Below, piece after piece: positions 13,565-35,838 of a DNA stretch of 39,592 bases. The translations under genes and the position numbers were made by a program. The notes under the pieces were generated by a model. That model was not told where the DNA came from. It ran no database searches and saw only the letters and a program-made list of their open reading frames with translations. The stretch comes from Phenylobacterium sp. (lineage in GTDB: Bacteria > Pseudomonadota > Alphaproteobacteria > Caulobacterales > Caulobacteraceae), in assembly GCF_016793285.1 (NCBI RefSeq), contig NZ_JAEUMO010000248.1, forward strand, positions 1-39,592, written 5' to 3'. The number at the start of each line of letters is the position of its first letter. Within the stretch, counting starts at the first letter, position 1.

Positions 13565-14206
13565 CTAGCGGGTGCCGTACATGCGGTCGCCCGCGTCGCC
13601 CAGCCCCGGCAGGATGTAGCCGTGGTCGTTCAGCCGCTCGTCGACCGCCGCCGTCCAGACCTTCACCGCGGCGTGGTGGCCCTGGAACTTCGACAGTCCC
13701 TCCGGAGAGGCCAGCAGGCAGGCCATGCGGATATCCTTCGCGCCGGCCTCCAGCAGGCGGTCGACCGCGGCGATGGCGGTGTTTCCGGTGGCGAGCATCG
13801 GGTCGATCACGATCACGCTGCGGTCGGCGAGATCGGCCGGCGCCTTGAAATAGTATTCCACGCAATTGAGCGTCGCCGGGTCGCGGTAGAGGCCGATGTG
13901 GGCCACGCGAGCCGCCGGGACCAGGTCGAGCATGCCGTCCAGCATGCCCATGCCCGAGCGCAGGATCGGCGCGAACACCAGCTTCTTGCCCGCCAGCATC
14001 GGGGCCCGCATCGCGGTCAGCGGCGTCTCGATCTCCACCTGCTCCAGCGGCAGGTCGCGGGTGACCTCGTAGGCCAGCAGCGAGCCGATCTCCTTCAGGA
14101 GCTGGCGGAAGCTCTTGGTCGAGGTGTCCTTCTTCCGCATCAGGGTCAGCTTGTGCTGCACCAGCGGGTGGTCGACGACGGTGACGCCCTTGATGGCCCG
14201 AGCCAT
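13565..14206 (-). CDS. upp: Uracil phosphoribosyltransferase
   Basis: 213 residues with all UPRT landmarks: [22 protein letters not shown] at the N-terminus, [24 protein letters not shown], the PRPP-binding loop [19 protein letters not shown] and the uracil-binding C-terminal [17 protein letters not shown]. It makes UMP from uracil and PRPP. The ATG at 14206 is preferred to a TTG six bases upstream. It is the last gene of the minus-strand unit GTP cyclohydrolase II homologue - DUF1688 - upp, 12 bp after the DUF1688 stop. In the yeast URC pathway, a UPRT (URC6) provides the UMP-level intermediate, so this copy likely feeds that pathway as well as salvage. Confidence 0.95.
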
Positions 14207-14218
14207 GCGCAAGTCCCT

Positions 14219-15382
14219 CTAGAAAACCGTGCCGTCGGAGATGACGGCGATGGGCGGGCCCGCGTCGGCCCGCTTCTCCCGGGCGATGCGCCGGCCCGCG
14301 GCCCACGACCCGCCCTCCAGCACCCGCGCCAGCGGGAACGCTGCGGCGCTGACCCCCAGCCGCGCGCGGACCAGCGGCGCGAGCCTGTCGAGCAGCGCCA
14401 CGGTCAGGGACCGCCAGCCCACGACCAACGGCCCGTCGACGGGATGCGCGCGGCCGGCGTCGGCCGGATCGGCCAGTTGCAGGACGCCGGTGTCCACGAA
14501 GAGGCCCCCGTTGCGGTATTCCGCGAGGCCCGTCAGCCCGTCGACGTCGACGACCTCGATCCCCGCCGCCTCCAGCGGCTCGATCAGCGAATAGCTCATC
14601 CACTGGCTGAGCTTGTGCAGCGGCACGTAGCCGTCGACGGCCGGGTGGGTCCAGCAGTCGCCGAGCGGCCGCCCGCCCAGGCTCAGGCGGCCCGGCCAGA
14701 TCGGCCCCAGCGCCTGGAGCAGCACCTCCAGGATCACCGGGGCGCGCAACCGCCCGCCCTCGGCGTGCTTGCTCATGACATCGAACAGCGCGCCCGGCCG
14801 GCCCACCGCGTCGCCCAGCCGGCGCAGCAGTTCGGCGCGGCCTTCGAGGCCTACCAGCGGGTTGTCGTCGCGGACCTGGAACGCCTGCGCGATCATCGCG
14901 GCGTCCACCTTCGCCAGTCCGTCGGCGCGCAGCGGATCGGCCGGATCGGCCGACAGCGCCCCCGACTGAAAGAGCCGCAGCGACGCCACGCCCAGACCCT
15001 CGGATCGCCCCAGCACCGCGCCGGTGGCCGCGTCGCAATAGCGCCACGCCGCGCCTGCGCCGGCGTCCAGCAGCACCGAGGGGATCACCAGGTCGAAGGC
15101 GGCGCGGCCGAGCTCCTTCGGGTCTGCCGGCTTCTCCGCCTCGGCCCACAGGTCGCGGCCCTCCACGACGAAGTGCCGCCAGCGGGCGTGGAACGGCACG
15201 TCGAGGTCCGGATAGTTGGTCCGCACCGTCTCGACGGTGAGGTCGGCGGCGATCTCCAGCCGGTCGAGGTCCAGCCGCCACTCGGCGAGCCTCCCCGCCT
15301 CGGCCAACGCCAGCATCTCATGCGCCCGCTCGCGCACGGCCGCCGCGGTGAGCAGGCGGCGGGCTTCAGCAGCTTCCGACAA
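14219..15382 (-). CDS. urc4: DUF1688 / URC4-type uracil catabolism protein
   Basis: 387 residues matching the DUF1688 (URC4/Urg3) family: the N-terminal DLTVETVRTNYPDLDVPFHARWRHF, the central DLVIPSVLLDAGAG and RLFQSGALS, then HPAVDGYVPLHKLSQWMSYSLIEPLE, DGLTGLAEYRNGGLFVD and WRSLTVALLD. The family is genetically required for uracil use in Lachancea kluyveri, but its chemistry has not been firmly defined. The start codon is TTG, directly abutting the TAG stop of the upstream GTP cyclohydrolase II homologue (zero spacing), with AAGGA eight bases before. This is strong translational coupling and shows the two act together. Confidence 0.92.
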   Translation of the reverse strand: MSEAAEARRLLTAAAVRERAHEMLALAEAGRLAEWRLDLDRLEIAADLTVETVRTNYPDLDVPFHARWRHFVVEGRDLWAEAEKPADPKELGRAAFDLVIPSVLLDAGAGAAWRYCDAATGAVLGRSEGLGVASLRLFQSGALSADPADPLRADGLAKVDAAMIAQAFQVRDDNPLVGLEGRAELLRRLGDAVGRPGALFDVMSKHAEGGRLRAPVILEVLLQALGPIWPGRLSLGGRPLGDCWTHPAVDGYVPLHKLSQWMSYSLIEPLEAAGIEVVDVDGLTGLAEYRNGGLFVDTGVLQLADPADAGRAHPVDGPLVVGWRSLTVALLDRLAPLVRARLGVSAAAFPLARVLEGGSWAAGRRIAREKRADAGPPIAVISDGTVF

Positions 15383-16639
<1,257 letters not shown>

Positions 16640-16663
16640 GCGTGGCGTGACCTCCAGAGTCGA

Positions 16664-16700
16664 AAAGGCCCTGCCCGGTTTTCGCCGGCGCAGGGCCTTT
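16664..16700 (-). promoter_or_regulatory. Terminator-like hairpin in the leader of the URC operon
   Basis: AAAGGCCCTGC (16664-16674) and GCAGGGCCTTT (16690-16700) form a perfect 11-bp stem. An inner CCGG/CCGG pair (16675-16678 with 16685-16688) extends it across one bulged base. On the minus strand the RNA hairpin ends in UUUU and sits eight bases before the ribosome site of the GTP cyclohydrolase II homologue. No gene ends here on either strand, so it is in a 5' leader, where it would act as an attenuator or other switch (inference). In the plus direction it lies 124 bp before the DUF1428 gene. Confidence 0.6.
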
Positions 16701-16824
16701 GAGAGCGAACAGTGATCCTAGTGCGCGGAATTGGCAACAAATCCTCTATGCGGTGTCGGAACGACCCGCGCCCGCGCGTCTTCAAGAGGCCGGGCCGACC
16801 GGGCATCACATCGGAGACACTGAC

Positions 16825-17178
16825 ATGACCTACGTCGACGGCTTCGTCCTGGCGATCCCCAAGGCCAACAAGGCGAAGTATCTCGAGATGGCGCAGAAGG
16901 CCTGGCCGCTCTTCAGGGAGTTCGGCGCGATCCGCCATGTGGAGTGCTGGGGCGACGATGTGCCCGACGGCAAGGTCACCGACTTCAAGGGCGCGGTGAA
17001 GGCCAAGGACGACGAGGTCGTGGTCTTCGCATGGGTCGAATACCCCTCCAGGGCGGTCCGCGACGCGGCCAACAAGCGGATGATGGAGGACGAGCGCATG
17101 TCGGGCATGGAGATGCCGTTCGACGGCGCCCGCATGATCTTCGGCGGCTTCACGCCGATTCACGACGAAAGCGCCTGA
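16825..17178 (+). CDS. DUF1428 (YbaA-like) family protein
   Basis: 117 residues, full length for the family: MTYVDGFVLAIPKANKAKYL, then HVECWGDDVPDGKVTDFKGAV, DDEVVVFAWVEYPSRAVRDA and MPFDGARMIFGGFTPI. This is a ferredoxin-like, dimeric alpha/beta-barrel fold of unknown biochemical role. The start at 16825 has CGGAG eight bases upstream and gives the exact family N-terminus; a longer frame from 16699 has no family support. It is single, divergent from the URC operon and convergent with allantoicase at an 11-bp gap. Nothing ties it to nucleobase breakdown except position. Confidence 0.9.
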   Translation: MTYVDGFVLAIPKANKAKYLEMAQKAWPLFREFGAIRHVECWGDDVPDGKVTDFKGAVKAKDDEVVVFAWVEYPSRAVRDAANKRMMEDERMSGMEMPFDGARMIFGGFTPIHDESA

Positions 17179-17189
17179 CGCGGCCGACG

Positions 17190-18173
17190 CTAGCGCACGA
17201 CCGTCCCGTTCAGCCGCAGGCGGCTGACGCCGCCGTCGGGGTAGATGTTCAGGCGGACGAAGCGGACCGCGCCGAGGTCCGCGAGTTCGTCGCGGAACGT
17301 GTGGACGGTGTCGGCCTGAAGCTTCACCTCGGGCAGCAGAACCGGCCAGGCTTCGGCCTGCGCGGCGATCTCGTCGGGCGCGCCGTGGGCGCGGCGCGTG
17401 GCCTGGATCGAGCAGCGGTCGGGATAGTTGCCCTTGAAGTGCGCGGTGTCGACCACGACCTCGCCCACCCGGCCGAAGGTCCCGAGTTCGAGGATCGCCC
17501 AGTCGTGGCCGGGTTCGCGGCGCCGCCGCGTCTCCCAGCCGTCGCCCATGTTCACGCCGCGGCCGGGCGCGGTCAGGTTGCCCACAGCGCCGTAGTGCTC
17601 GTCGTTGGCGATGATGCCGCGCCCGCCGTTGGCGACGGCCAGCAGGTCGACGACGGCGCCGTCGGCCACCTCGCCCCAGTCGGGTTCGACCCGGCCCCAG
17701 ACGCGCAGGCGCGCCACGCCGCCATCGGGATAGATGTGAAGGCGGACATGGGTGATCGGCTCGGCGTGGTCGACCGGTACGTAGATGCGGTCGTCGCCGT
17801 GGAGGTCGACGCGCGGCGTCACCTTCACCCAACCCGCCGCCGGATTCGGCTCGTCCGACCGGCAGACCTCGACCTCGGCGCCGGGCGGGTAGTTGCCGGT
17901 GAAATGGCTGGTGTCGATCTCGAAGCCGGCGACGCGGCCCGCGACGCCGAGCCGGATCACGCACCAGTCGTGGCCGGGGCCGCGCTTGCGGCGGCTCTCC
18001 CAGCCGTCCATCCACTTGCCGTTGTCGTCGTACTTGCCGGCGATGAAGACCGGTGGCTCGGGCGCGATCAGCCGGGCCTTGTCGGCGAAGAAGTCGTCGG
18101 TGGCGAACACCACCTCCGAGCCCAGGCGAGGCTGGGCGAGGTCCACGTACCGGCGGCGCAGGTCGTCGAACAT
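17190..18173 (-). CDS. alc: Allantoicase
   Basis: 327 residues, the usual allantoicase length, built of two homologous beta-sandwich repeats. Repeat 1 contains GHDWCVIRLGVAGRVAGFEIDTSHFTGNYPP and HVRLHIYPDGGVARLRVWG. Repeat 2 contains GHDWAILELGTFGRVGEVVVDTAHFKGNYPD and FVRLNIYPDGGVSRLRLNG. The enzyme hydrolyses allantoate to ureidoglycolate and urea in the cytoplasm. It is the last gene of the operon puuE - hydrolase - uraD - alc, eight bp after uraD. The ATG at 18173 gives MFDDLRRRYVDLAQPRLGSE, the standard N-terminus. Use of allantoicase rather than allantoate amidohydrolase fits the ureidoglycolate lyase encoded on the other strand. Confidence 0.96.
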   Translation of the reverse strand: MFDDLRRRYVDLAQPRLGSEVVFATDDFFADKARLIAPEPPVFIAGKYDDNGKWMDGWESRRKRGPGHDWCVIRLGVAGRVAGFEIDTSHFTGNYPPGAEVEVCRSDEPNPAAGWVKVTPRVDLHGDDRIYVPVDHAEPITHVRLHIYPDGGVARLRVWGRVEPDWGEVADGAVVDLLAVANGGRGIIANDEHYGAVGNLTAPGRGVNMGDGWETRRRREPGHDWAILELGTFGRVGEVVVDTAHFKGNYPDRCSIQATRRAHGAPDEIAAQAEAWPVLLPEVKLQADTVHTFRDELADLGAVRFVRLNIYPDGGVSRLRLNGTVVR

Positions 18174-18181
18174 CGGCGGGC

Positions 18182-18655
18182 TCACATCAGGTCGGCGAGG
18201 CGCAGGCTTGCGATCCGATGGATCTGGGCGATGGCCGTCGCGAATTCGGTCTCGAGGTCGTTGGCGAGGCGCGCCTCGAAGGCGGCCAGAATCTCCGCTC
18301 GTTCTGCACCCTTCACCACGTAGACAAAAGGGAACTGAAAGCGCGCATTGTAGGCCGCATTCAGGCGGCGGAAGGCGGCGAACTCCTCGGCGCTGCACCG
18401 GTCGAGGCCGGCGCCGGCCTGCTCCTTCACGGACGCTTCGGCCATCGCGGTGCGGCTGGCGAGTTCCGGGTGCGCCCGGATCAGCGCCAGCTTCTTCTCC
18501 CGCGGCGCGGCGTCGACCACGGCGGCCATGGCGGCGGCGAGCTGCTCGCGGTCGTGCGGCGGGTCGGGCCAGACGCCCTCGGCGACCCAGGGCGAGGCCT
18601 CGTAGACCGCGCCGAACCGGGCCAGGAACTCCGCGCGCGAGAGCTTGCGGCTCAT
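18182..18655 (-). CDS. uraD: 2-oxo-4-hydroxy-4-carboxy-5-ureidoimidazoline (OHCU) decarboxylase
   Basis: 157 residues. Family markers in order are FLARFGAVYEASPWVAEGVW, AHPELASR with the catalytic His62, the SVKEQAGAGL segment, FAAFRRLNAAYNARFQFPFVYVVKG, and a C-terminal helical stretch ending IASLRLADLM. The enzyme converts OHCU to S-allantoin, the third step of urate breakdown after PuuD and UraH. Its ATG overlaps the TGA of the preceding hydrolase gene (ATGA at 18652-18655). Fused UraH-UraD proteins exist in other species; here the two are separate and on opposite strands. Confidence 0.95.
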   Translation of the reverse strand: MSRKLSRAEFLARFGAVYEASPWVAEGVWPDPPHDREQLAAAMAAVVDAAPREKKLALIRAHPELASRTAMAEASVKEQAGAGLDRCSAEEFAAFRRLNAAYNARFQFPFVYVVKGAERAEILAAFEARLANDLETEFATAIAQIHRIASLRLADLM

Positions 18656-19461
18656 CCGGCGAAGGCCCGTTCGAGGAACGCCACCAGGTTCGCGCGCGCC
18701 GCAGCGGCGGCCTGCGGATGGAACTCGAACGGCACCGGTCCGCCCTTGCCCTTGTGCGCGTAGGGATCGGTGATGACCTTCGCCGGCAGGTCGCGGTCGA
18801 AGGCGTGGGTCGCGCCCTCGTGGACGACGAGTTCCACGCGCGCCCGGTCGGCCGGCGCGAGGGAGGCGAGGAAGCCCGCGCAGACCTCGGGGTCGTCGTA
18901 GGCGTCGGCTCCGCCCGCCTGGATCAGCACGGGCGCTCCGGCGAGGTCGGCGAAGTCGTGGCCGGGCGCGCGGTTGTAGCTCCAGAGCGCGGGATAGAAG
19001 GCGGCGTGGGCGGCGAAGGCGGTCCCGGGCTCGGCATGCGCCGCCACGTTGGCCCGCGTGGCGCTCAGCAGGCTCACGACGCCGCCCCAGGAGAACCCGG
19101 CGACGGCGATGCGCCTGGGGTCCACCTCGGGCTGCCGGGCCAGGAAGGCGAGCGCGGCGAAGGCGTCCGGCAGGGTCGAGGGCACGGACGACGGCCTGCC
19201 GGCCGCGCCGCGGACCGTCCCGCGCGCGGCCCACATGTCGACCTCAAGGGTTGCGATCCCCGCGGCGTTCAATGCTGAGATGTGGAAGCCGCCGCGGCCG
19301 TCGACGCCGTCCGAGCCATGGCAGACGACCACCGCGCCGACCTGCGGCGGCGCCGCGCCCGGCTCGACCAGCGGCACGCGAAGCTGACCCGCCACGGTCA
19401 GGCCGTCGCGGGTGGGGAACGCCACGTAGGACGTCCGGAAGGCCATCGGTTCAGCCGCCAT
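18652..19461 (-). CDS. Dienelactone-hydrolase-like protein within the allantoin operon
   Basis: 269 residues, cytoplasmic (no signal peptide), alpha/beta-hydrolase fold: VVVCHGSDGVDG (oxyanion region), the nucleophile elbow GFSWGG with Ser124, an acid in GADAYDDPE (Asp186 or Asp189) and His219 in GATHAF. Classical dienelactone hydrolases use Cys; here it is Ser, as in many DLH relatives. Its start (19461, or 19446 with GGCGG upstream) overlaps or abuts the puuE stop, and its stop overlaps the uraD start, so it is translationally locked between two allantoin-pathway genes. No step of the known pathway needs it. It may hydrolyse a side product or a ureide ester/lactam; this is speculation. Confidence 0.85.
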   Translation of the reverse strand: MAAEPMAFRTSYVAFPTRDGLTVAGQLRVPLVEPGAAPPQVGAVVVCHGSDGVDGRGGFHISALNAAGIATLEVDMWAARGTVRGAAGRPSSVPSTLPDAFAALAFLARQPEVDPRRIAVAGFSWGGVVSLLSATRANVAAHAEPGTAFAAHAAFYPALWSYNRAPGHDFADLAGAPVLIQAGGADAYDDPEVCAGFLASLAPADRARVELVVHEGATHAFDRDLPAKVITDPYAHKGKGGPVPFEFHPQAAAAARANLVAFLERAFAG

Positions 19462-20362
19462 GGGGATACGTCTCCCGCCAGTGCCGGGCGATCTCGACGC
19501 GCCGGGCAAACCAGACATCCTCGTGTTCGAGCGCATAGCGGATGAACCGCTCCAGCCCCGCGATCCGGCCCGGCCGCCCGACGATGCGGCCATGCAGGCC
19601 GACGCTCATCATCTTCGGCCGCTCGGCGCCCTCCGCGTAGAGCACGTCGAACGCGTCCTTCAGGTAGCCGAAGAACTGCTCGCCCGTGGCAAGCCCGCCG
19701 CCCGAGAAGCGCATGTCGTTGGCCTCCAGCGTGTAGGGCACGATCAGGTGCGGCCGTCGGTTGACCTCGGTCCAGAACGGCAGGTCGTCCGAGTAGTCGT
19801 CGGCGTCGTAGAGGAATCCCCCGTCGTCGGCGATCAGCTTGCGCGTGTTGGGGCTGGTGCGGCCGGCGTACCAGCCCAGCGGATGCTCGCCCGTCAGCCG
19901 CCTGTGGATCTCGATGGCGCGGTGCAGGTGCTCGCGCTCCACCCGCTCGGGCACGTCCTGGTAGCTGATCCAGCGCCAGCCGTGGCTGGCGATCTCGTGG
20001 CCGGCCTCCAGCATCGCCTCCACGACGGCCGGGTTGCGCTCCATCGCCATGGCCACGCCGAACACCGTCACCGGCGTCCCGTAACGCTCGAAGAGGCGCA
20101 GCAGCCGCCACACGCCCGCGCGGGCGCCGTACTCGTAGATCTGCTCCATCGACATGTGCCGCGCGCCCAGGACCGGCGCGGGGGCGATCAAGTCGGAGAG
20201 GAAGGTCTCCGCGCCCGGGTCGCCGTGCAGGACCGAGTTCTCGCCGCCCTCCTCGTAGTTCAGCACCATCTGGATCGCGATGCGCGCGCCCCCGGGCCAG
20301 CGGGCGTGCGGCGGGTCCCTGCCGTAGCCGATCAGGTCGCGCGGATAGGACGTCTCGGGCAT
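19451..20362 (-). CDS. puuE: Allantoinase PuuE (polysaccharide-deacetylase-like, metal-independent type)
   Basis: 303 residues, matching PuuE: the N-terminal YPRDLIGYGRDPPHARWPGG, then ARIAIQMVLNYEEGGENSVL, HMSMEQIYEYGARAGVWRLL, the NodB-like GHEIASHGWRWISYQ, GWYAGRTSPNTRKL, DADDYSDDLPFW and IVPYTLEANDMRF. It hydrolyses allantoin to allantoate and is unrelated to the amidohydrolase AllB. The ATG at 20362 gives the conserved start; an upstream ATG would add a short non-conserved tail. It is the first gene of the minus-strand purine operon and divergent from uraH across 111 bp. Confidence 0.95.
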   Translation of the reverse strand: MPETSYPRDLIGYGRDPPHARWPGGARIAIQMVLNYEEGGENSVLHGDPGAETFLSDLIAPAPVLGARHMSMEQIYEYGARAGVWRLLRLFERYGTPVTVFGVAMAMERNPAVVEAMLEAGHEIASHGWRWISYQDVPERVEREHLHRAIEIHRRLTGEHPLGWYAGRTSPNTRKLIADDGGFLYDADDYSDDLPFWTEVNRRPHLIVPYTLEANDMRFSGGGLATGEQFFGYLKDAFDVLYAEGAERPKMMSVGLHGRIVGRPGRIAGLERFIRYALEHEDVWFARRVEIARHWRETYPHGG

Positions 20363-20399
20363 GGATCGACCGCTTAGCAGGGGTTCGGGCGGCATGCAG

Positions 20400-20419
20400 C
20401 GTCGCAATCCTGCGCGACG
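20400..20419. promoter_or_regulatory. Inverted repeat in the divergent puuE-uraH promoter region
   Basis: CGTCGC (20400-20405) and GCGACG (20414-20419) are six-bp arms with an eight-bp spacer, 38 bp from the puuE start and 54 bp from the uraH start. TTGCAA follows at 20421. A single operator here could control both purine operons. No purine-responsive regulator gene is in the window, so the binding protein is unknown. Confidence 0.4.
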
Positions 20420-20473
20420 GTTGCAATTCGCGGCCCGAGCGCGGAATCTGGACGGCCGACTGCTGGACTTCGA

Positions 20474-20815
20474 ATGAGCGGCCTCACCACCCACGTCCTC
20501 GACACCATGCATGGCCGGCCCGCCGCGGGCATGTCGCTGCGCCTGCTGCGCGGCGCCGAGACCCTGGTGGCGACGGTGACCAACCTCGACGGCCGGCTGG
20601 ACAGGCCGTTGCTCGCCGGATCGGCGCTGAGGGCGGGCGGCTACCGGCTGGAGTTCGACGTCGGCGAATACTTCCGCGACATGGGCGTGCCGCTGTCGCA
20701 GCCGTCGTTCCTGGAGACCGTGGTCGTCGATTTCAGCGTCGACGAGCCGGAGAGCCACTATCACGTACCGCTGCTGGTCAGCCCGTTCGCCTACTCGACC
20801 TACCGGGGCAGTTGA
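20474..20815 (+). CDS. uraH: 5-hydroxyisourate hydrolase (transthyretin-like)
   Basis: 113 residues, with the transthyretin-related protein signatures: LTTHVLDTMHGRPAAGM (His7), TNLDGRLDRPL (Arg41), GGYRLEFDVGEYF, the ESHYHVPLLVSPFAYSTY segment (His97) and the diagnostic C-terminal YRGS. It opens 5-hydroxyisourate to OHCU. There is no periplasmic signal, so it acts in the cytoplasm. First gene of the plus-strand purine operon, two bp before xdhA. Confidence 0.97.
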   Translation: MSGLTTHVLDTMHGRPAAGMSLRLLRGAETLVATVTNLDGRLDRPLLAGSALRAGGYRLEFDVGEYFRDMGVPLSQPSFLETVVVDFSVDEPESHYHVPLLVSPFAYSTYRGS

Positions 20816-20817
20816 GG

Positions 20818-22246
20818 ATGGCCCGCCCGATCCGCTTCCTGCTCGACGGCGTGGTCCGCGAGTCGCCGGCCGACACCGACCCGACGCTGACGGTGCTGAA
20901 CCTGCTCCGCTACCATCTGCGCCGGACGGGCACGAAGGAAGGCTGCGCGGAGGGCGACTGCGGCGCCTGCACCGTCGTGCTGGGGGAGCTGGAGGGAGAG
21001 CGGGTTCGGTTCCGCGCGGTCAACGCCTGCATCCTGTTCGCGCCGATGCTGGACGGCCGGGCGCTGTTCACGGTCGAGAGCCTGGGGCGCGAAGGCGCGC
21101 TGCATCCCGTCCAGCAGGCGATGGTCGACCTGCACGCCAGCCAGTGCGGCTTCTGCACGCCGGGGTTCGTGATGAGCCTCTACGCGCACCAGCGCGAGGG
21201 CGCGCCGAGCGACCCGCAGAGCCTGAAGGACGCGCTCGCCGGCAACCTCTGCCGCTGCACGGGCTACGGTCCGATCCTGGCGGCCGGGCAGGCGATGGGC
21301 GCGGCCCCCGAGGCGGACATCGCCGCGGCGCTGAAGGCGATCCAGCCCGCCGAGGGCCTCGCGATCGAGCACAAGGGCCGCCGCTTCGTCGCGCCGCGGT
21401 CGGCCGACGAGCTGGCCGCGACGCTGGAGGCGAACCCGGACGCGACGGTGCTGGCGGGCGGAACCGACATCGGCCTGTGGGTGACCAAGCAGCGGCGGGT
21501 GCTGCGGACGATCGTGTCGCTGAACGACTGCGCGGACCTGAAGGCCGTCGAGGACCTCGGCCCTGCGATCCGGATCGGCGCGGCCGTGCGCTACGCCGAC
21601 GCCCACGCGGCGCTGGCCGCGCTGCACCCCGACTTCGGCGAGCTGCTGCGCCGGCTGGGCGGGCAGCAGGTGCGGAACCTCGGCACGGTCTGCGGCAACA
21701 TCGCCAACGGCTCTCCCATCGGCGACATGCCGCCGGCGCTGATCGCCGCGGACGCGACCCTGGTGCTGCGCAGGGGCGCCGCGCGGCGGGAGCTGCCGCT
21801 GGAGGCCTACTTCCTGGCCTACGGCAGGCAGGACCGCGCGCCCGGCGAGTTCGTCGAGGCCGTGATCGTGCCGAAGCCGGCGGCCGGTCGGATCTTCAGG
21901 ATCGCCAAGCTTTCCAAGCGCTTCGACCAGGATATCTCAGCGGTCTGCCTGGGCCTGTCGGTGGGCGTCGAGGCCGGTCGGGTCACCGACGCGCGCATCG
22001 CCTTCGGCGGCATGGCGGCGACGCCGAAGCGCGCGGTTGCCTGCGAGGCGGCGCTCGCCGGCCGACCCTGGACGCCCGCGACGGTGGAGACCGCGGTCGG
22101 GACCCTCGCCGACGACTTCGCGCCGATCACCGACATGCGGGCCTCCGCAGGCTACCGGCTCGAAGCCGCCGGCAACCTGATCCGCCGCGCCGTCCTGGAG
22201 AGCCAGGGCGCCGCGGCGCGCCTGCTCGACGCCGAGGCGGTCGCCC

Positions 22247-22254: not shown

Positions 22255-24548
<2,294 letters not shown>

Positions 24549-24556
<8 letters not shown>

Positions 24557-25679
24557 GTCGCCCCCGAAGGCCCTCCCCCTCGAGGGCGGAGGATCGGGCG
24601 GCGCCGCCGCCGACGCGGCCCGGATCGCGCATCTGGCCACGACGCCGAGTGCGCCCGACGTCGACGGACCGGCGAACACCACCATCCCCGGCCCTTCCTC
24701 CGTCGAGGCGGAAGGGCGAACATCCGCCGGCTGGATCCGCGAGGCGCTGGAGTCCGTCCGCAGCGGCGAGACGCTGGCGATGGCGACCGTCGTCGGCGCG
24801 CGGGGGTCCACGCCGCGCGAGGCCGGCGCGCGGATGCTGGTGTGGCCCGACCGCTTCAGCGGCACCATCGGCGGCGGCGCGCTGGAGAAGCAGGCGCTGG
24901 ACCAGGCGCGCCGGCTGCTGGCGCAGGACGTGCGTCGTCACGCCCTGCAGGACTATCCGCTCGGGCCGCTTCTGCGGCAGTGCTGCGGCGGCCACGTCCG
25001 GCTGCTGCTGGAGCGCCTGGACGGCGAGAGCCTGGCGTGGCTGACGCCGGCGGCCGCGGCGCGCGGCCCCTTCGCCTTGACCGCGAGGTTCGCCGGGGGC
25101 CGCATGAGCCGTTCGCTGGACGGGCCGGGACCGCACGGCTCGGACGGTCCGACGACCCCGATCATGGAGGTGCGCTGCTTGTCCGAAACGATCCGCCCCG
25201 CGCTGCCGCGCGTGGTCATCTTCGGCGCGGGCCACGTCGGCCAGGCCGTGGCGCGGGCGTTCGCGCCCCTGCCCTTCCACCTCGACTGGCTGGCCAGCCG
25301 CGAGGATCTGCGGCCGGAAGCCAGCGGCACGCGGGCCGAGATCTTCCCGGAGGACGAACTGGTGGAGGCCGTCGAGGCGGCCCCGGCCGGCACGCTGGTG
25401 GCGATCTTCACGCACAGCCACGATCTCGACTACCGGCTGACGCTGGCGGCGCTGCGGCGGGACGACCTGGCCTACGTCGGCCTGATCGGCTCGCGCACCA
25501 AACGGGCGCGCTTCGACCGGCGCCTGCGCGACGACGGCGTGACCGAAGCCGAACTCGCCCGCCTCACCTGCCCCATCGGCATCGCCGACCTGAGGTCGAA
25601 GGAGCCGGCGGTGATCGCGATCGCGCTCGCGGCCCAATTGCTGAAGCTGACCGAAGCCGCCGGGGACGCGGACGCCTGA
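24549..25679 (+). CDS. xdhC: Xanthine dehydrogenase accessory protein XdhC with aberrant N-terminus
   Basis: 376 residues. From Trp62 on it is a regular XdhC: LAMATVVGARGSTPREAGARML, SGTIGGGALEKQAL, CCGGHVRLLLE, then a Rossmann domain with VVIFGAGHVGQAVARAF and FTHSHDLDYRLTLAAL, YVGLIGSRTKRARF. XdhC binds molybdenum cofactor, helps its sulfuration and inserts it into XdhB. Residues 3-60 are a Gly/Ala/Pro-rich stretch without family similarity that coincides with a palindromic DNA repeat (24571-24716). No ATG, GTG or TTG lies in frame just before Trp62. The start at 24549, overlapping xdhB, is therefore probably real and the repeat is translated. Confidence 0.92.
24571..24716. repeat. Paired palindromic repeat (REP/MITE-like) inside the 5' end of xdhC
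   Basis: The left end holds CCTCC, the palindrome CCCTCGAGGG and GGAGG (24572-24593). The right end holds CCCTTCC (24692-24698) and GGAAGGG (24710-24716) with further pairing inside. The two ends are imperfect inverted copies of each other (GCCCTTCCGCCTCGACGGAGG-like when the right end is read on the minus strand, against GCCCTCCCCCTCGAGGGCGGAGG on the left). The block is in frame and has no stop codon. Copies of this type are common between genes in related genomes; family membership needs a genome search. Confidence 0.5.
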
Positions 25680-26878
25680 TGGTGGCGGCGCTGGAGATCT
25701 GGGCCAATCTGGCGATCCGCTGGCTGCACCTGATCGCGGGCATCTCCTGGATCGGATCGTCCTTCTATTTCATGTGGCTGGACAGCCATCTGAAGAAGCC
25801 CGACGACGCGCCGGCCGATGTTCCGGAGGGGGGCGTCGCCGGCGAACTCTGGAGCGTCCACTCGGGCGGCTTCTACCGGCAGATGAAGTTCATGGTGGCC
25901 CCGGCCGGGATGCCGCAGGACCTGCACTGGTTCAAGTGGGAGGCCTACACCACCTGGATCTCGGGCTTCCTGCTGCTCGGTCTGATCTTCTACGTGGGCG
26001 CCGACCTCAACCTTATCGACAGGAGCAGGGCCGACCTCGCCGGCTGGCAGGCCATCGCCCTGGGCCTCGGCAGCCTGGTCGCCGGGTGGGCGGTCTACGA
26101 CGGCCTCTGCCGCTCGCCCGTCGGGCAGAACCTGAGGCTTTTCAGCGTCGTGTGGTTCGCCGTTCTCGTGGCCGCCGGGTGGGGCCTGACGCGCGTCTTC
26201 TCCGACCTCGGCGCCTTCATGCATGTGGGCGCGATCATCGGCACGGTGATGGCCGCCAACGTGCTGATGATCATCATCCCGAACCAGCGCAAGGTGGTGG
26301 CCCAGGTGCTGGCGGGCGAGACGCCCGACCCGGCCCTCGGCAAGCAGGCCAAGCAGCGTTCGGTCCACAACAACTACATGACGCTGCCGGTGCTGTTCAT
26401 CATGATCAGCAACCACTACCCGATGATCTTCGCCGCCCCGCTGAACTGGCTGTGGCTGGCGGGGCTGGGGATCGCCGGCTGGACGATCCGCCACTTCTTC
26501 AACCTGCGGAACGCCGGGCGCACGGAGCCGCAGGTGCTGGTGTTCGGCGCCCTGGCCTTCCTGACCGTGGCGGTGCTCAACGAGACCGCGCGGCCGAAGC
26601 CGGCGGCGGTCGCCGGGGTTCCCGCCTACGCCGAGGTCCGCGCCATCGTCGACCGGCATTGCGTCACCTGCCACGCGGCGCATCCGACGCACCGCGGCGT
26701 TCCCGTCGCCCCGAACGGGGCGATGTTCGACACGGCCGAGGGGCTGCGGAAGCACGCCCAGCGCATCTACGAGCGCGCGGTGGCCACCACCTCGATGCCG
26801 CAGGGCAACGAGACCGGCATGACGGCGGAGGAGCGCGGCAAGCTGGGGGCGTGGATCAGGTCGGGGGCCAGGACATGA
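25679..26878 (+). CDS. puuD: Membrane urate hydroxylase PuuD with C-terminal cytochrome c domain
   Basis: 399 residues. The N-terminal domain has about eight membrane spans and PuuD motifs: NLAIRWLHLIAGISWIGSSF, SGGFYRQMKFMVAP, LHWFKWEAYTTWISGF, AHVGAIIGT-like FMHVGAIIGTVMAANV, IPNQRK and HNNYMTLPVLFIMISNHYP. The C-terminal part from about residue 315 is a cytochrome c domain with CVTCH and a likely Met axial ligand in TTSMPQGN. PuuD oxidises urate to 5-hydroxyisourate and is thought to pass electrons to the respiratory chain through its heme, instead of making peroxide like soluble uricase. The ATG overlaps the xdhC stop (TGATG); the stop overlaps the next gene (ATGA). Confidence 0.96.
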   Translation: MVAALEIWANLAIRWLHLIAGISWIGSSFYFMWLDSHLKKPDDAPADVPEGGVAGELWSVHSGGFYRQMKFMVAPAGMPQDLHWFKWEAYTTWISGFLLLGLIFYVGADLNLIDRSRADLAGWQAIALGLGSLVAGWAVYDGLCRSPVGQNLRLFSVVWFAVLVAAGWGLTRVFSDLGAFMHVGAIIGTVMAANVLMIIIPNQRKVVAQVLAGETPDPALGKQAKQRSVHNNYMTLPVLFIMISNHYPMIFAAPLNWLWLAGLGIAGWTIRHFFNLRNAGRTEPQVLVFGALAFLTVAVLNETARPKPAAVAGVPAYAEVRAIVDRHCVTCHAAHPTHRGVPVAPNGAMFDTAEGLRKHAQRIYERAVATTSMPQGNETGMTAEERGKLGAWIRSGART

Positions 26879-27369
26879 GGCGGATCGTTCCCGAGCCCCT
26901 GACCGCCGACGCCTTCGCCCCGTTCGGCGATGTGATCGAGGCCACCGACGAGGCGGAGGTCATGCCGATCAACCAAGGCTGGACCACCCGCTTCAATGCG
27001 CTGGCCGACGTCGCGGTGGGCGACGGGCGCGCGATCATCAGCATCTTCCGCTCGAGGCCGCTGACGCCGCCCGTACTGAAGGTCTTCGAGCGCCACCCGC
27101 TGGGCAGCCAGGCCTTCATGCCGCTGGACGGCCGGCCGTTCCTGGTGGCGGTCGCGCCGGGCGGCGGCGACTTCGACCCGGCCGCCGTGCGCGTGTTCCG
27201 CGCCGCCGCGACGCAAGGAGTGAACTACGCCAGGGGGACGTGGCACCACTTCCTGCTGGCCCTGGAGGCCGAGAGCGACTTCCTGGTGGTCGACCGCGAC
27301 GGCGGCGCGGGCGAGAACCTCGACGAGGCCGAGCTCGCGGAAGCCGACTGGATCGCCGTCGCGCCATGA
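26875..27369 (+). CDS. allA: Ureidoglycolate lyase
   Basis: 164 residues, the normal AllA length: IVPEPLTADAFAPFGDVIE at the N-terminus, then FNALADVAVGDGRAIISIFRS, KVFERHPLGSQAFMPLDGRPFLVAVAP, GVNYARGTWHHFLLAL and DFLVVDRDG. It is a cupin-like fold that splits ureidoglycolate into glyoxylate and urea, the last step of the allantoin route. The start overlaps the puuD stop by four bases, so the two are translationally coupled. With allantoicase, it accounts for release of both urea molecules; no urease gene lies in the window. Confidence 0.95.
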   Translation: MRRIVPEPLTADAFAPFGDVIEATDEAEVMPINQGWTTRFNALADVAVGDGRAIISIFRSRPLTPPVLKVFERHPLGSQAFMPLDGRPFLVAVAPGGGDFDPAAVRVFRAAATQGVNYARGTWHHFLLALEAESDFLVVDRDGGAGENLDEAELAEADWIAVAP

Positions 27370-27403
27370 GCCCGCCTTCGCCAGGGCCTCGGAGCGAAGC
27401 ACG

Positions 27404-28711: not shown

Positions 28712-28733
28712 ACTGCGGGCCTCGTCGCGGCCT

Positions 28734-30206
28734 TCAGAAGCGGGCCGCCTCGAAGGCCTTCAGCAACCGCTCGTGCCGCCACTGCTCGCGGGCCTTGTCG
28801 CTCCTGGCGACGAGGCCGGCGCAGGCGCCCTTCGGCGTCTCGGCGCCGATCTGGCCGGCGCAGGCGGCGACGGGCCGGCGATAGACGTTCGGGTCGGCCC
28901 AGAGGCCGTCGCCCGCCAGGAAGCTGAAGGCGATGGCGTTGCGCGCGGCGGTCTTCAGGTCGGCATAGGTCGCTCCGTTCCTCACCGCGGCCGCGTAGTC
29001 GCCCGAGAGCTCGGTGCGCGTGATGCCGGCGTCGTCGGTGGAGAGGGCCACCGGCACGCCCTTCTTCCGGAACCAGGCGTAGGGGTGATCCTTCGGGTCG
29101 ATCTCCAGGATCGCCTGGTTGGAGAGCATGTTGACCTCGATCAGCACGCCCTTCGCCGCCATCTCCTCGGCGGTGGCGTCGGCGCCGACCTCCTCGGGGA
29201 GCGCCACGCCGTGGCCGATGCGGCGGGCGCCGGCCACGCGGACCGCGTCGCGGACGTGGTGGCTGAGGGTCCTGGGCGTCACGAGCTTCAGGGTGAGCTC
29301 GCCGGCGTGCAGGGCCACCGGCGTCGCGCGGCCGTGGTCGGTCAGCAGGTCCACGATCTGCATGTGCAGGTCGTAGTAGCGGGTGGAGTCGAAGCCGTCC
29401 TCCGGCGCCACGAGCTGCAGGCCGACCCAGCGCCGGTCGGCCGCCACCACCGCGACGCCCATCTGGAGCTGGGCCATCGTCTGCTCGGGCGGCCCGTCGC
29501 GCAGGGCCTGGGCGAGGAAGCGGAACGTCACCTGGCAGCCCGGCCGCTCGTCCGCGGCGCCGCACCGCAGGACCTCGCGCGCGCGCTCGACGATCCGGTC
29601 GGTGTCGGCGCTGACCGCGGGGACCAGGCCGTCGATCCCGGCCGCGGCGAGCGCCGCCCTGGTGGCCGCCGGCGTCCCCCGCCAGCCGACGCGCGCGCCC
29701 AGGCCCCGCGACGGGCCGAACTGCGGCGTCACCATCAGCTCGGCGTAGAAGGTGTTCTGCCGCGCGAGGCCGTCCAGCGTTTCGGCGAGCGCGTCGCCGG
29801 CGCGCTTCGGCGTGGTCGCGCGGCGGGCGAAGGCGGTGAAGAACTGGTCGTGACCCGAGCGGTCGCGGAAGCCGGGACGGCGCGTCGTCAGGCTGTCGAT
29901 CAGGGCCGAGCGCAGCGGCTCGCTGGCCTGGACCTCGGCGGCGGGCTTCATGGCCTCGCCGGCGCAGGCGAAGCTGATGGCCAGGGCCGCGGTGTCGACG
30001 CAGAGCCCGTCCTGCGCCGCCCAGGCCAGGATGTCCTCGGCCGGCGCGCCGCCGCCCAGGTGGTTGTGCAGCTCGCCCCCCTTCGGGAACGCCTTCAGGA
30101 AGGCGGCGAGCTCGGCCGCGCCCATCTTCGCCAGGTCCGGGGGCGCGGCGGCGGCGGGGGTCGCGAGCGCGAGCGCCGCTGCGAGGGGGGTCAGGAGTCT
30201 TCGCAT
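28734..30206 (-). CDS. Exported adenosine deaminase-like protein
   Basis: 490 residues. An N-terminal signal peptide (MRRLLTPLAAALALATPAAA) is followed by an adenosine deaminase TIM barrel: KGGELHNHLGGG (His47, His49), VALHAGELT, RRIGHGVALPEE and VALSTDDAGITRTEL. It is about 150 residues longer than cytoplasmic Add and resembles secreted ADGF/CECR1-like deaminases. It would deaminate adenosine in the periplasm or outside. The ATG at 30206 is chosen because it gives the signal peptide; an upstream in-frame start would overlap the nitroreductase gene. It lies 32 bp after that gene and is the last gene of the long minus-strand run. Confidence 0.9.
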   Translation of the reverse strand: MRRLLTPLAAALALATPAAAAPPDLAKMGAAELAAFLKAFPKGGELHNHLGGGAPAEDILAWAAQDGLCVDTAALAISFACAGEAMKPAAEVQASEPLRSALIDSLTTRRPGFRDRSGHDQFFTAFARRATTPKRAGDALAETLDGLARQNTFYAELMVTPQFGPSRGLGARVGWRGTPAATRAALAAAGIDGLVPAVSADTDRIVERAREVLRCGAADERPGCQVTFRFLAQALRDGPPEQTMAQLQMGVAVVAADRRWVGLQLVAPEDGFDSTRYYDLHMQIVDLLTDHGRATPVALHAGELTLKLVTPRTLSHHVRDAVRVAGARRIGHGVALPEEVGADATAEEMAAKGVLIEVNMLSNQAILEIDPKDHPYAWFRKKGVPVALSTDDAGITRTELSGDYAAAVRNGATYADLKTAARNAIAFSFLAGDGLWADPNVYRRPVAACAGQIGAETPKGACAGLVARSDKAREQWRHERLLKAFEAARF

Positions 30207-30238
30207 GGCGGTCAACCGGCCAAAGCTCGCCCGCGCGG

Positions 30239-30862
30239 TCAAGCTTCGGGCGCCGCCGCCCGCTGGCCGCCGAGCCTGCCCTCGAAGGCGAAGGTGGCGA
30301 CGGCGTTGCGGCCGCTGGGGACTTCGCGGGCGCGCAGCGCCTCGTCGAGGACCTCGGGATCGGCGATCCTGCCGACGGCGATCGCGGCGTGGACCTCGTA
30401 CTGGTCGGCGTCGACGCCGAGCGCGTCGTAGGACCGCGCGAGATCGAAGCCCGCCATGCCGTGCGCGGCCCAGCCGATGCGGCTCGCCTCCAGCGCGAGG
30501 TAGCCCCAGGCGGCGCCGGCGTCGAACGCGTGGCTGCGCACCGGCGCCGGGTCGCGGCCCTCGGTGCGGCGGAAGCGGTCGGAGACGACGAACATCAGGA
30601 CCGAGGCGTTCTTCGCCCAGGACTGGTTGTAGGGGATCAGGAGGTCGAACAGCGGCGCCCAGGCCGGCGTGTCGCGGTGCGCGTAGACGAACCGCCAGGG
30701 CTGGCCATTGAAGGCCGAGGGCGCCCAGTGGGCGGCCTCGAACAGGCGCAGCAGGTCTTCGTGCGGCATCGCCTCGCCGGTGAAGGCGCGCGGCGACCAG
30801 CGCTGCAGGAAGATCGGATCGACCTCGTACTCGGCCGTGCGGCCGTTCAGCGTCTGCGTCAC
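30239..30862 (-). CDS. Nitroreductase-family flavoprotein in the RutE position
   Basis: 207 residues with nitroreductase motifs: RWSPRAFTGEAMPHEDLLRLFEAAHWAPSAFNGQPWRFVY, LMFVVSD, AFDAGAAWGYLALEASRIGWAAHGM and a C-terminal RIADPEVLDEALRAREVPSGR. It binds FMN. It follows rutC by one base, exactly where malonic-semialdehyde reductase RutE would be expected, but I recognise none of the E. coli RutE sequence (for example its MKWGPTSANCSPARIV stretch). It may replace RutE or recycle flavin for RutA. The start codon is GTG at 30862, dictated by the tight spacing to rutC. Confidence 0.88.
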   Translation of the reverse strand: MTQTLNGRTAEYEVDPIFLQRWSPRAFTGEAMPHEDLLRLFEAAHWAPSAFNGQPWRFVYAHRDTPAWAPLFDLLIPYNQSWAKNASVLMFVVSDRFRRTEGRDPAPVRSHAFDAGAAWGYLALEASRIGWAAHGMAGFDLARSYDALGVDADQYEVHAAIAVGRIADPEVLDEALRAREVPSGRNAVATFAFEGRLGGQRAAAPEA

Positions 30863-30863
30863 C

Positions 30864-31253
30864 CTACTTCTTCCCCACGTGCGCGATGGAGGCGATCTCG
30901 ACCAGGAAGTCCGGCCGCACCAGCCCGCAGACGATGCAGAACCGCGCCGGCTTCTCGCCCGGGAAGTACTCGGCGTAGACCTTGTTCATGGCCGCGTAGT
31001 CGGCCCAATCCTTCAGGAAGATGTGGTTCATGGTGACGTCGTCCATCGTGCCGCCGGCGGTCTCGATGACGGACTTGATGGTCTCCAGCACCTGCCGCGT
31101 CTGGGCCTCCGCGTCGCCGACGTGGGCGACGCCGTTGTCCTTGTCGAAGGCGAGCGTCCCGGAGACGTAGACCACGCCGTCGGCCAGCGTGCCCGGCGAG
31201 AACGGTGCGATGGGCGTCTGCGTCCCAGGTGGGGTGATGACGGTCTTGGGCAT
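30864..31253 (-). CDS. rutC: Aminoacrylate deaminase RutC (RidA family)
   Basis: 129 residues: [20 protein letters not shown], then [75 protein letters not shown] and [12 protein letters not shown]. This is the RutC branch of the RidA/YjgF fold, with the conserved Arg in KPARF. It speeds conversion of 3-aminoacrylate to malonic semialdehyde and ammonia. AGGAG precedes the ATG. It lies eight bp after rutB and one bp before the nitroreductase gene. Confidence 0.95.
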
Positions 31254-31261
31254 TCGCTCTC

Positions 31262-31987
31262 CTAGATGTTCTCGGGCGGCGCCTGGCCGACGGCGCCGCA
31301 GAAGTCGGCGGTGTTCGACACCCAGCCGAAGAACCGCTCGACGTTGAAGACGGTGGCTTCCTGCAGGAAGGCCGGGCCGGCCTGGTGCGTGGCGTCCTCG
31401 ATCAGCACGCCGAAGTACTCGCGGTGGAAGCCGTCGCGCAGGGTCGACTCGACGCAGACGTTGGTGGCGATGCCGCAGAAGGCGAGGTTCCTGATGCCGC
31501 GCGCCCGCAGCATCGAGTCGAGCGCGGTGTTGTAGAAGGCCGAGTAGCGCGGCTTCTCGATGACGATGTCGCCCCGCTGCGGCGTCAGGCGGTCGACCAG
31601 GGCGTAGTCCCAGGTCCCCTTGGCGAGCAGCGTGCCCGAGAGTTCCGGCTTGTCGCGCATGGTCTTGAGCGCATTCGACTTCCACCAGTTGGGAGACCCC
31701 TCGCCGCCGGCTTCGGCGTAGTCCGGGTCCCAGCCGTTCTGGAAGAACACGATCTGCACGCCGGCCCTTCGCGAAGCCTCGACCAGCACGGCGATCTTCT
31801 CGATGACGGCCGCCGCGCCGCCGATGTCGAACCCGGCGATGTCGAGGTAGCCGCCGGGCGAGGCATAGGCGTTCTGCATGTCGACCACGATCAACGCGGT
31901 CGCCTTGGGGTCGATGGGCAGGTTCTCGGGCCGCGCCGGCAGCGTCACGGCGCCGGCGATGGGGACGGTGGGCCTAGGCGCCGACAT
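31262..31987 (-). CDS. rutB: Ureidoacrylate amidohydrolase RutB
   Basis: 241 residues of the isochorismatase-like cysteine hydrolase fold. Catalytic residues are Asp36 ([18 protein letters not shown]), Lys145 ([15 protein letters not shown]) and Cys178 ([16 protein letters not shown]). Segments [24 protein letters not shown] and EDATHQAGP follow E. coli RutB closely. It hydrolyses ureidoacrylate to aminoacrylate, CO2 and ammonia. It overlaps the rutA stop by 14 bases and is translationally coupled to it. Confidence 0.97.
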
Positions 31988-33050
31988 GCTGGCGGCTCTG
32001 CATCAGCGGCTGGATCTTCGTCCCGAAGTCTTCGACCCCCCGCACGAAGTCGTCGAAGGTCAGCAGGACGCCGGCGGTCCCGGGCACGCCCGCCACTTCG
32101 TCCAGCATGCGGGCGATGTTCTCGTAGCTCCCCACCAGGGTGCCCATGTTGAGGTTCACCGCCGACTCCGGCGCGGCGAGCTGGGTGGTGTTGGTGTTCG
32201 AGGTGCCGCCCTGGGCGTTCGGCGCGGCCTGGTTGGTGAGCCAGGCCAGCGCGTCCTGGTCGGCGCCGTCGCGGTATAGCCGCCACTTGGCCATGGCCTT
32301 CTCGTCGGTCTCGTCGGCGATGACCATGAAGAGGATGTAGGCGGCGACGTCGCGGCCGGTCCTGGCCTTGGCGGCGGCGAGGCGGTCGTTCACCCCGGCG
32401 AACGCGGTGGGCGTGTTGGTCCCCTTGCCCAGCGCGAACGAGTAGTCGGCATACTCGGCGGTGAAGGCCAGGCCCTCGTCGGACGATCCGGCGCAGATGA
32501 TCTTCACGCCCGGCGTCGGCTTCGGCGAGACCCGGCAGTCGTTCATCGTCAGGTACTTGCCCTTGAAGTCGGAGACGCCGGTCTCCATCAGCCCCTTCAG
32601 CACCGTCGCGTACTCGGCGAGGTAGTTGTAGCGGTCGGCGTAGTGGCTCTCGCCCGGCCACAGGCCCATCTGGTCGTACTCGGCCTTCTGCCATCCGGTG
32701 ACGAGGTTGATGCCGAAGCGGCCGGGCGCGATGGAATCGATGGTCGACGCCATGCGCGCAACGATGGCCGGCGGGATCGTCAGCGTCGCGACGGTGGCGA
32801 ACAGCTTGATCTTCGACGTCACCGCCGCGAGGCCCGCCATCAGGGTGAAGCTCTCGAGGTTGTGCTCCCAGAACTCGCTCTTCCCGCCGAAGCCGCGCAG
32901 CTTGATCATGGAGAGCGCGAAGTCGAAGCCATGGCGCTCGGCCTTCTGGACGATCTCCTTGTTGAGCGCGAAGCTCGGCATGTACTGCGGCGAGGTGGTC
33001 GAGATGAGCCAGCCGTTGTTGCCGATCGGGATGAAGACGCCGATTTCCAT
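31974..33050 (-). CDS. rutA: Pyrimidine monooxygenase RutA
   Basis: 358 residues, a bacterial luciferase-like flavin monooxygenase. [76 protein letters not shown] and [19 protein letters not shown] are near-identical to known RutA. It uses reduced FMN and oxygen to cleave the uracil ring to ureidoacrylate (peracid form). The ATG at 33050 has AGGGG upstream. No flavin reductase RutF is in the window, so reduced FMN must come from elsewhere or from the nitroreductase. A candidate coupling hairpin links it to the upstream LOG gene. Confidence 0.97.
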
Positions 33051-34911: not shown

Positions 34912-34948
34912 CCGGCTGCGCTTCCTTCGGGAGCTCCGAAGGCCGGGC

Positions 34949-35833: not shown

Positions 35834-35838
35834 GCCGC

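What the first reader, a model, noticed from the sequence alone, without database searches (positions are those of the whole stretch)
13565..33050. URC and RUT uracil catabolic pathways flank a full purine degradation locus
Seen: a URC-type operon (GTP cyclohydrolase II homologue, DUF1688, upp) at 13.6-16.6 kb, and rutA-rutB-rutC at 30.9-33.1 kb, with guanine-to-glyoxylate genes between. Known: URC (from Lachancea kluyveri genetics) and RUT (E. coli) are unrelated solutions to the same substrate. Having both in one 20-kb island suggests division of labour, for example URC for UMP-level or oxygen-limited use, RUT for free uracil under oxygen. I do not know of a described system with both linked.
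Basis: partly seen in the sequence, partly recalled or inferred. Interest (0 to 1): 0.75.

Follow-up and report, generated by a model that had tools for sequence, protein, structure and literature searches.

The report
Two uracil pathways in one island
A bacterium of the genus Phenylobacterium carries two different uracil-breakdown pathways in one gene island together with a complete purine-breakdown pathway, an arrangement kept in several related species and possibly tied together by how the released nitrogen (urea or ammonia) is used.

Summary
urc1-urc4-upp (13565-16639) and rutA-rutB-rutC (30864-33050) flank a complete guanine-to-glyoxylate set (guaD, xdhABC, puuD, uraH, uraD, puuE, alc, allA), confirmed by profile searches. 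The linkage is a kept arrangement: of 15 other URC loci in the genus (Phenylobacterium) with at least 25 kb of flank visible, 8 carry the same array with RUT. It looks genus-restricted: in other sampled genomes URC and RUT co-occur unlinked, and none of 80 named URC loci has rutABC within 10 kb. Three additions. (1) 16 of 27 URC-bearing relatives have urease genes beside urc1 (13 complete, 3 cut by contig ends), before allantoicase; this strain lacks them (a clean 5.9-kb absence against its closest relative found), and no urease alpha subunit or full urea carboxylase was found in its 97%-complete genome. (2) URC4/DUF1688 is predicted to have the fold of the queuosine-5'-phosphate glycosidase DUF2419, which supports a ribosylurea-cleaving, urea-releasing step. 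(3) RutF was not found; a flavin-oxidoreductase-like gene follows rutC. Urease tracks allantoicase better than URC. An oxygen-based division of labour has no support here; a split by nitrogen product (URC urea, RUT ammonia) fits but is untested.

The parts
13565..14212 (-). upp, uracil phosphoribosyltransferase (URC6 role)
   Evidence: TIGR01091 270.9 bits over cut-off
14219..15382 (-). urc4, DUF1688; predicted DUF2419/Qng1-like N-glycosidase fold
   Evidence: PF07958 418.6 bits; model pLDDT 93.6; the only 11 Foldseek matches with E<=0.001 are all DUF2419 chains
15383..16639 (-). urc1, GTP-cyclohydrolase-II-like enzyme of the URC type
   Evidence: NF005536 748.1 bits; PDB 7ej3/7eev 621 bits
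16789..17178 (+). DUF1428 protein; in the closest relative found (G533) the urease operon follows it directly
   Evidence: PF07237
17179..17189 (.). place where 5,861 bp holding ureDABCEFG are missing relative to G533
   Evidence: blastn: window 15385-17181 and 17190-26872 match G533 9265-11066 and 16928-26592
17190..18179 (-). alc, allantoicase
   Evidence: TIGR02961 420.4 bits
18182..18652 (-). uraD, OHCU decarboxylase (start approximate)
   Evidence: PF09349 158.8 bits in the frame 18182-19234
18652..19461 (-). dienelactone-hydrolase-like protein; present in part of the relatives
   Evidence: PF01738
19451..20362 (-). puuE, allantoinase
   Evidence: TIGR03212 501.3 bits
20474..20815 (+). 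uraH, hydroxyisourate hydrolase
   Evidence: TIGR02962 120.8 bits
20812..22254 (+). xdhA
   Evidence: TIGR02963 604.7 bits
22247..24556 (+). xdhB
   Evidence: TIGR02965 1230.8 bits
24549..25679 (+). xdhC
   Evidence: TIGR02964 279.6 bits
25679..26878 (+). puuD, membrane urate oxidase/hydroxylase with a weak C-terminal cytochrome match
   Evidence: PF06181 418.8 bits; PF13442 20.7 bits, under its cut-off of 27
26875..27369 (+). allA, ureidoglycolate lyase
   Evidence: PF04115 168.7 bits; NF009932 165 bits
27404..28711 (+). guaD, guanine deaminase
   Evidence: TIGR02967 546.8 bits
28734..30242 (-). adenosine-deaminase family protein with a signal-peptide-like N terminus (judged by eye)
   Evidence: PF00962 79.8 bits; under the NCBIfam equivalog cut-off
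30239..30862 (-). nitroreductase-family flavin oxidoreductase following rutC; candidate for the RutF or RutE role
   Evidence: PF00881 76.4 bits; best PDB match 2fre, NAD(P)H-flavin oxidoreductase, 207 bits; RutE model 41.3 bits, cut-off 152
30864..31262 (-). rutC
   Evidence: TIGR03610 230.7 bits
31262..31987 (-). rutB
   Evidence: TIGR03614 402.6 bits; PDB 8bkd 338.5 bits
31974..33050 (-). rutA
   Evidence: TIGR03612 667.1 bits; PDB 6sgl 566.4 bits
33110..33904 (-). LOG-family (possible nucleotide phosphoribohydrolase) just upstream of rutA
   Evidence: TIGR00730 96.9 bits, cut-off 96.35; PDB LOG-type matches

Best explanation
This is a nucleobase-catabolism island of Phenylobacterium in which two chemically different uracil routes and the whole guanine/xanthine route are kept together. 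Shown: gene content, order, its recurrence in 9 genomes of the genus, and the presence of urease between URC and allantoicase in 16 of 27 other URC-bearing genomes. Inferred: RUT (RutABC, with the neighbouring flavin oxidoreductase supplying reduced flavin in place of the missing RutF) opens free uracil with O2 and gives its nitrogen as ammonia. URC first makes UMP (Upp), Urc1 opens the ring, and Urc4, an N-glycosidase of the DUF2419 fold, cuts (phospho)ribosylurea into ribose (phosphate) and urea. The purine branch also ends in urea (alc, allA). In most relatives that have alc beside URC, a neighbouring urease turns this urea into ammonia. In the window's strain urease is gone, so URC and the purine branch would give carbon and excreted urea while RUT would still give usable nitrogen.
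For: Profile hits. Same array in G000, G006, G108, G518, G519, G530, G532, G533, G542. rutABC tree and island-gene tree of these 9 share 5 of 6 internal splits. Urease operon identified by Pfam in G006 and, in part, in G081 of another genus and by tblastn in the others; in the family sample urease is rare (5 of 119) and 4 of the 5 are among the 14 DUF1688 genomes. Urease with alc: 11 of 13 alc-positive loci, 0 of 6 alc-negative. Own genome: no urease alpha subunit at E<=1e-100, no urease gene in the window at 1e-12, no over-cut-off urea carboxylase. URC4 fold match to DUF2419 and weak Q_salvage profile match in 11 of 42 URC4 proteins, best E 0.00066. Yeast literature: URC1 and URC6 to 3-hydroxypropionate and ribosylurea, URC4 to urea, URC3/5 urea amidolyase (PMC7530994, passages; PMC8709784, passage).
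Against: No expression, growth or enzyme data. Urease tracks allantoicase, not URC: URC loci without alc have no neighbouring urease, so urease need not serve URC. 10 of 14 URC-bearing genomes of the family sample have no urease and none of the 22 genomes tested, which include all 14, has an over-cut-off urea carboxylase, so urea from URC would often be useless as nitrogen. rutA pairwise distances correlate poorly with most island genes (Spearman -0.11 to 0.43). A profile of URC4 found nothing in the PDB by sequence, and the window's own URC4 did not itself match Q_salvage. No uracil/xanthine permease of the NCS2 family in the own genome, so uptake is unexplained. The window genome is a 271-contig draft.
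Confidence: 0.5

Rival explanations
1. One reading: URC serves UMP-level or oxygen-limited use, RUT serves free uracil under oxygen.
For: RutA is an O2-dependent flavin monooxygenase (recalled); URC starts from UMP via Upp in the yeast scheme (PMC7530994 passages).
Against: No oxygen-related regulator or site was looked for beyond one small promoter scan (nothing found); the co-kept XDH and PuuD steps point to respiring conditions (inference); nothing in the comparative data separates the two by oxygen.
Confidence: 0.1
2. Redundancy with passive co-inheritance: the island is a generic nucleic-acid scavenging cluster (shared induction by nucleobases), RUT was inserted once between the flavin oxidoreductase gene and the LOG gene and is kept or lost without any division of labour.
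For: RUT is missing from 7 of 15 well-visible URC loci; in G513 the two flanking genes lie 85 bp apart without rut; rutABC plus the oxidoreductase gene exist without URC in G118.
Against: Order and adjacency are kept across 9 genomes with matching trees.
Confidence: 0.25
3. Urease belongs only to the purine branch and bacterial URC does not make urea.
For: Urease follows alc, not URC (11/0/2/6 table, p=0.001); five genomes (G547, G540, G565, G539, G529) have urc1 beside guaD with neither urease nor alc seen, though three of these five contigs show under 9 kb.
Against: Yeast URC makes urea; URC4 has a glycosidase fold fitting ribosylurea cleavage; in the class sample urease is commoner in URC genomes (20 of 37 against 94 of 348, p=0.001, not corrected for descent).
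Confidence: 0.2
4. Draft-assembly artefact: urease or other parts are missing or joined wrongly in this contig.
For: Metagenome-like draft of 271 contigs, 96.92% complete.
Against: The same URC-purine-RUT order is seen in 8 other genomes; flanks of the missing urease align base for base with G533; urease alpha subunit is not found on any other contig at 1e-100.
Confidence: 0.05

Closest known systems
RUT pathway (rutABCDEFG, E. coli K-12)
   Same: RutA, RutB, RutC at equivalog level in one tight operon; strong matches to solved E. coli-type RutA and RutB.
   Different: RutF not found in the genome, no NCS2 permease, no RutD seen in the ORFs scanned; a 2fre-like flavin oxidoreductase and an adenosine-deaminase family gene follow rutC, a LOG-family gene precedes rutA.
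URC pathway (URC1, URC4, URC6; Lachancea kluyveri) and the bacterial urc1-urc4-upp cluster
   Same: Same three genes in the same order as in Azospirillum, Pseudoroseomonas and Gordonia plasmids.
   Different: In those records, and in the 80 named loci, no RUT genes lie nearby. Yeast uses urea amidolyase; here relatives have urease and this strain has neither detected.
Bacterial purine ring-opening clusters with allantoicase, with or without urease (e.g. SAR11)
   Same: Full xanthine-to-glyoxylate set releasing urea; loss of urease with kept purine catabolism is described for SAR11 (PMC11698098, passages).
   Different: The SAR11 passages seen do not mention URC ('urc' and 'DUF1688' not found; the one 'rut' hit is an author name).
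DUF2419 / queuosine-5'-phosphate N-glycosidase (PDB 7u91 and others)
   Same: Predicted fold of URC4: TM 0.73-0.76 by target length, Foldseek probability 1.00.
   Different: 14-17% identity; active-site residues not compared; substrate surely different (inference).

Membership tests
RUT pathway | RutA, RutB, RutC orthologues | tested here: met
   Equivalog cut-offs passed
RUT pathway | RutF flavin reductase | tested here: not met
   No TIGR03615 match at E<=0.001 in the own genome; possible substitute at 30239-30862
RUT pathway | RutG uracil permease (NCS2) | tested here: not met
   No PF00860 match in the own genome
RUT pathway | RutE malonic semialdehyde reductase | tested here: inconclusive
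   Neighbouring nitroreductase-family gene scores 41.3 against a cut-off of 152; genome not searched
RUT pathway | uracil use as nitrogen source depends on rutA | not testable with these tools
   needs mutants
URC pathway | URC1, URC4 and uracil phosphoribosyltransferase genes together | tested here: met
   one operon-like run 13565-16639
URC pathway | urea-using enzyme downstream (urea amidolyase or urease) | tested here: not met
   Own genome: no urease alpha at 1e-100, no over-cut-off urea carboxylase; met in 16 of 27 other URC genomes of the genus
URC pathway | UMP converted to urea and a C3 product | not testable with these tools
   needs enzyme assay; URC4 fold only consistent with it
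Purine-to-glyoxylate pathway | guaD, xdhABC, urate oxidation, uraH, uraD, puuE, alc, allA | tested here: met
DUF2419/Qng1 glycosidase superfamily (URC4) | same fold | tested here: met
DUF2419/Qng1 glycosidase superfamily (URC4) | conserved catalytic residues | not tested
   no DUF2419 sequence or residue alignment was at hand

The most novel reading that the evidence does not exclude
The two uracil routes are split by the chemical form in which nitrogen leaves: URC (Qng1-like Urc4 releasing urea from ribosylurea) joins the purine branch at a common urea pool, RUT bypasses it and gives ammonia. Lineages such as this one that dropped urease keep URC and purine degradation for carbon and ribose recovery and excrete urea to neighbours, while RUT keeps uracil usable as a nitrogen source.
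Probability: 0.15. Interest if true: 0.65.

Novelty: new variant of a known kind. Interest (0 to 1): 0.5.

Why it matters
A single locus with both oxygenase (RUT) and nucleotide-level (URC) uracil catabolism gives a natural system to ask why bacteria keep two routes for one substrate. The comparison also points to a function for DUF1688 (N-glycosidase releasing urea) and to a urea pool shared by purine and possibly pyrimidine breakdown, with strain-level loss of urease that would turn a nitrogen scavenger into a urea donor.

Tried and rejected
The 80 are the best of 565 candidates, so not exhaustive, and RUT at 16-25 kb would lie outside these flanks.

Enrichment of RutA with DUF1688: positive in the class sample (5 of 8 RutA genomes against 37 of 385 overall, p=0.0003; 4 of 7 without the own genome, p=0.002; two of the four are one genus), but not in the family sample (5 of 14 against 22 of 105, p=0.30). 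None of these is corrected for descent.

Rfam scan: nothing. tRNA scan: nothing. Promoter/terminator scan of 16500-17300: nothing. Literature: ten searches of the held library listed no paper whose title or shown abstract describes URC and RUT in one locus or DUF1688 with DUF2419; not every listed paper was opened. The first tree run used some proteins read from the wrong strand and is replaced. RutE identity of the nitroreductase-like gene: not accepted (under cut-off). PpnN identity of the LOG gene: not accepted (31.5 of 450 bits).
Full report
Check of the observation. The window is the whole of contig C22 of a 4.49-Mb draft genome (271 contigs, 96.92% complete, 1.12% contaminated). Profile searches confirm urc1, urc4 (DUF1688) and upp as an operon-like run on the minus strand at 13565-16639, and rutA, rutB, rutC on the minus strand at 30864-33050. 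Between them lie alc, uraD, puuE (minus) and uraH, xdhABC, puuD, allA, guaD (plus), so guanine can be taken to glyoxylate. rutA-rutB-rutC-oxidoreductase-adenosine deaminase family overlap or nearly touch and look like one operon (coordinates).

Who it is.

How general is the linkage. Family sample of 119 genomes: DUF1688 in 14, RutA over cut-off in 27, both in 5; within 25 kb in 3, all of this genus (own 16.6 kb, G006 24.1 kb, G108 24.8 kb), 473 kb apart in G047, different contigs in G022. Class sample of 385: DUF1688 in 37, RutA over cut-off in 8, both in 5; linked only in the own genome; G212 has them 142 kb apart, the other three on different contigs. For draft genomes different contigs do not strictly exclude nearness. 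Genus: 28 of 101 genomes have DUF1688. I mapped all 28 with tblastn. Of the 15 others with at least 25 kb visible on the island side, 8 have rutABC in the same order; the window makes nine. The seven without are G039, G093, G500, G513, G539, G543, G580. In G513 the genes that flank rut elsewhere lie 85 bp apart. G118, of the same genus, has rutABC plus the oxidoreductase gene without DUF1688. Among 80 named URC loci (best of 565 candidates) none has rutABC within the 10-kb flanks; four plasmid loci with 20-kb flanks have none either, only a 40% RutC-like (Rid-family) match in one.

Common descent. Trees of rutABC and of ten island genes for the nine genomes share five of six internal splits; the sixth, the place of G519, has weak support (0.47 in the rut tree). 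Against this, rutA distances alone correlate poorly with most island genes (-0.11 to 0.43), while rutB and rutC do better (up to 0.68 and 0.77).

The urease node. Between urc1 and alc, 13 of the other 27 URC-bearing genomes of the genus have all seven genes ureDABCEFG, and 3 more have the first three or four before the contig ends; Pfam confirms UreD, urease gamma, beta, alpha, UreE, UreF and a CobW/HypB/UreG-type GTPase in G006, and gamma, beta, UreF and the GTPase in G081 of another genus. In the family sample urease is rare (5 of 119) and 4 of the 5 lie among the 14 DUF1688 genomes (p=0.0006). But the tie is to allantoicase: of 19 loci with at least 9 kb visible, urease is present in 11 of 13 with alc and 0 of 6 without (p=0.001). 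In the class sample urease is commoner in DUF1688 genomes (20 of 37, two of them under the family's cut-off, against 94 of 348; p=0.001, no correction for descent), and no pair lies on one contig nearer than 385 kb.

Loss in the window. Against G533, the closest relative found (rutA 95%, upp 97% identical), the window is collinear at 85-93% nucleotide identity; window 15385-17181 and 17190-26872 match G533 9265-11066 and 16928-26592, so 5,861 bp with the urease operon are absent here. Because 16 other genomes have urease there, loss is the simpler reading. No urease alpha subunit was found in the own genome at E<=1e-100 (a short fragment could escape that limit), no urease gene in the window at 1e-12, and no over-cut-off urea carboxylase in it or in the 21 other genomes tested (weaker matches, as listed, are biotin-carboxylase and biotinyl parts, and the list was cut).

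Mechanism. In yeast URC1 and URC6 lead to 3-hydroxypropionate and ribosylurea, URC4 frees urea, and URC3/5 break it down (PMC7530994, passages; the primary papers were not held). The URC4 model (42 sequences, mean pLDDT 93.6) matches only DUF2419 chains at E<=0.001 (11 of 11, probability 1.00, TM by target 0.73-0.76, 14-17% identity; next match E=1.1). That DUF2419 is a queuosine-5'-phosphate glycosidase is from the PDB titles and recall. This supports an N-glycosidase step releasing urea; it does not prove it. RUT chemistry (ureidoacrylate, then carbamate and aminoacrylate, then malonic semialdehyde, nitrogen as ammonia) is recalled. RutF is not found; the gene after rutC is most like a NAD(P)H-flavin oxidoreductase (2fre, 207 bits) and accompanies rutC in all nine linked loci and in G118, so it may supply reduced flavin (inference).

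Reading. The island joins all nucleobase breakdown. The best distinction visible between the two uracil routes is the nitrogen product, not oxygen. In the urease-less window strain URC and the purine branch would yield urea that it cannot be seen to use, as described for SAR11 purine users without urease (PMC11698098, passages), while RUT yields ammonia. 10 of 14 URC genomes of the family sample lack urease, so either URC is often a carbon or nucleotide-disposal route, or its end product is not only urea. This is open.

Verdict. Observation confirmed; linkage real and genus-restricted in the samples examined; oxygen interpretation unsupported; a new variant of a known kind of catabolic cluster, of moderate interest.

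Noticed in passing
L037:12034-12573 (G006): A PycTM (Pycsar effector) domain protein, PF18967, sits between the adenosine-deaminase gene and the oxidoreductase gene of the RUT operon in one relative; no partner cyclase was looked for.
   Followed up: no
L038:11209-12294 and L037:8875-10518: Relatives carry a NUP-family (PF06516) and a xanthine/uracil permease (PF00860) gene between guaD and the adenosine-deaminase gene; window and G533 lack both, and the own genome has no PF00860 member.
   Followed up: partly
window 33931-35860: A HupE/UreJ-like gene and a PpiC-type isomerase gene are inserted between LOG and M28-like genes relative to G533; a HupE-like gene also follows LOG in G530.
   Followed up: no
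window 28734-30242: The adenosine-deaminase family protein looks secreted (hydrophobic, alanine-rich N terminus, judged by eye), hinting at extracytoplasmic nucleoside processing.
   Followed up: no
window 10777-12045: A regulator with two TetR-type domains next to a CoA-transferase gene, kept beside URC in several relatives; its targets are unknown.
   Followed up: no
L040 / G039 (P. kunshanense BUT-10): URC, guaD and LOG kept but rut, xdh and alc absent, with a ureF-like match (61%) left near urc1, a possible urease remnant.
   Followed up: partly
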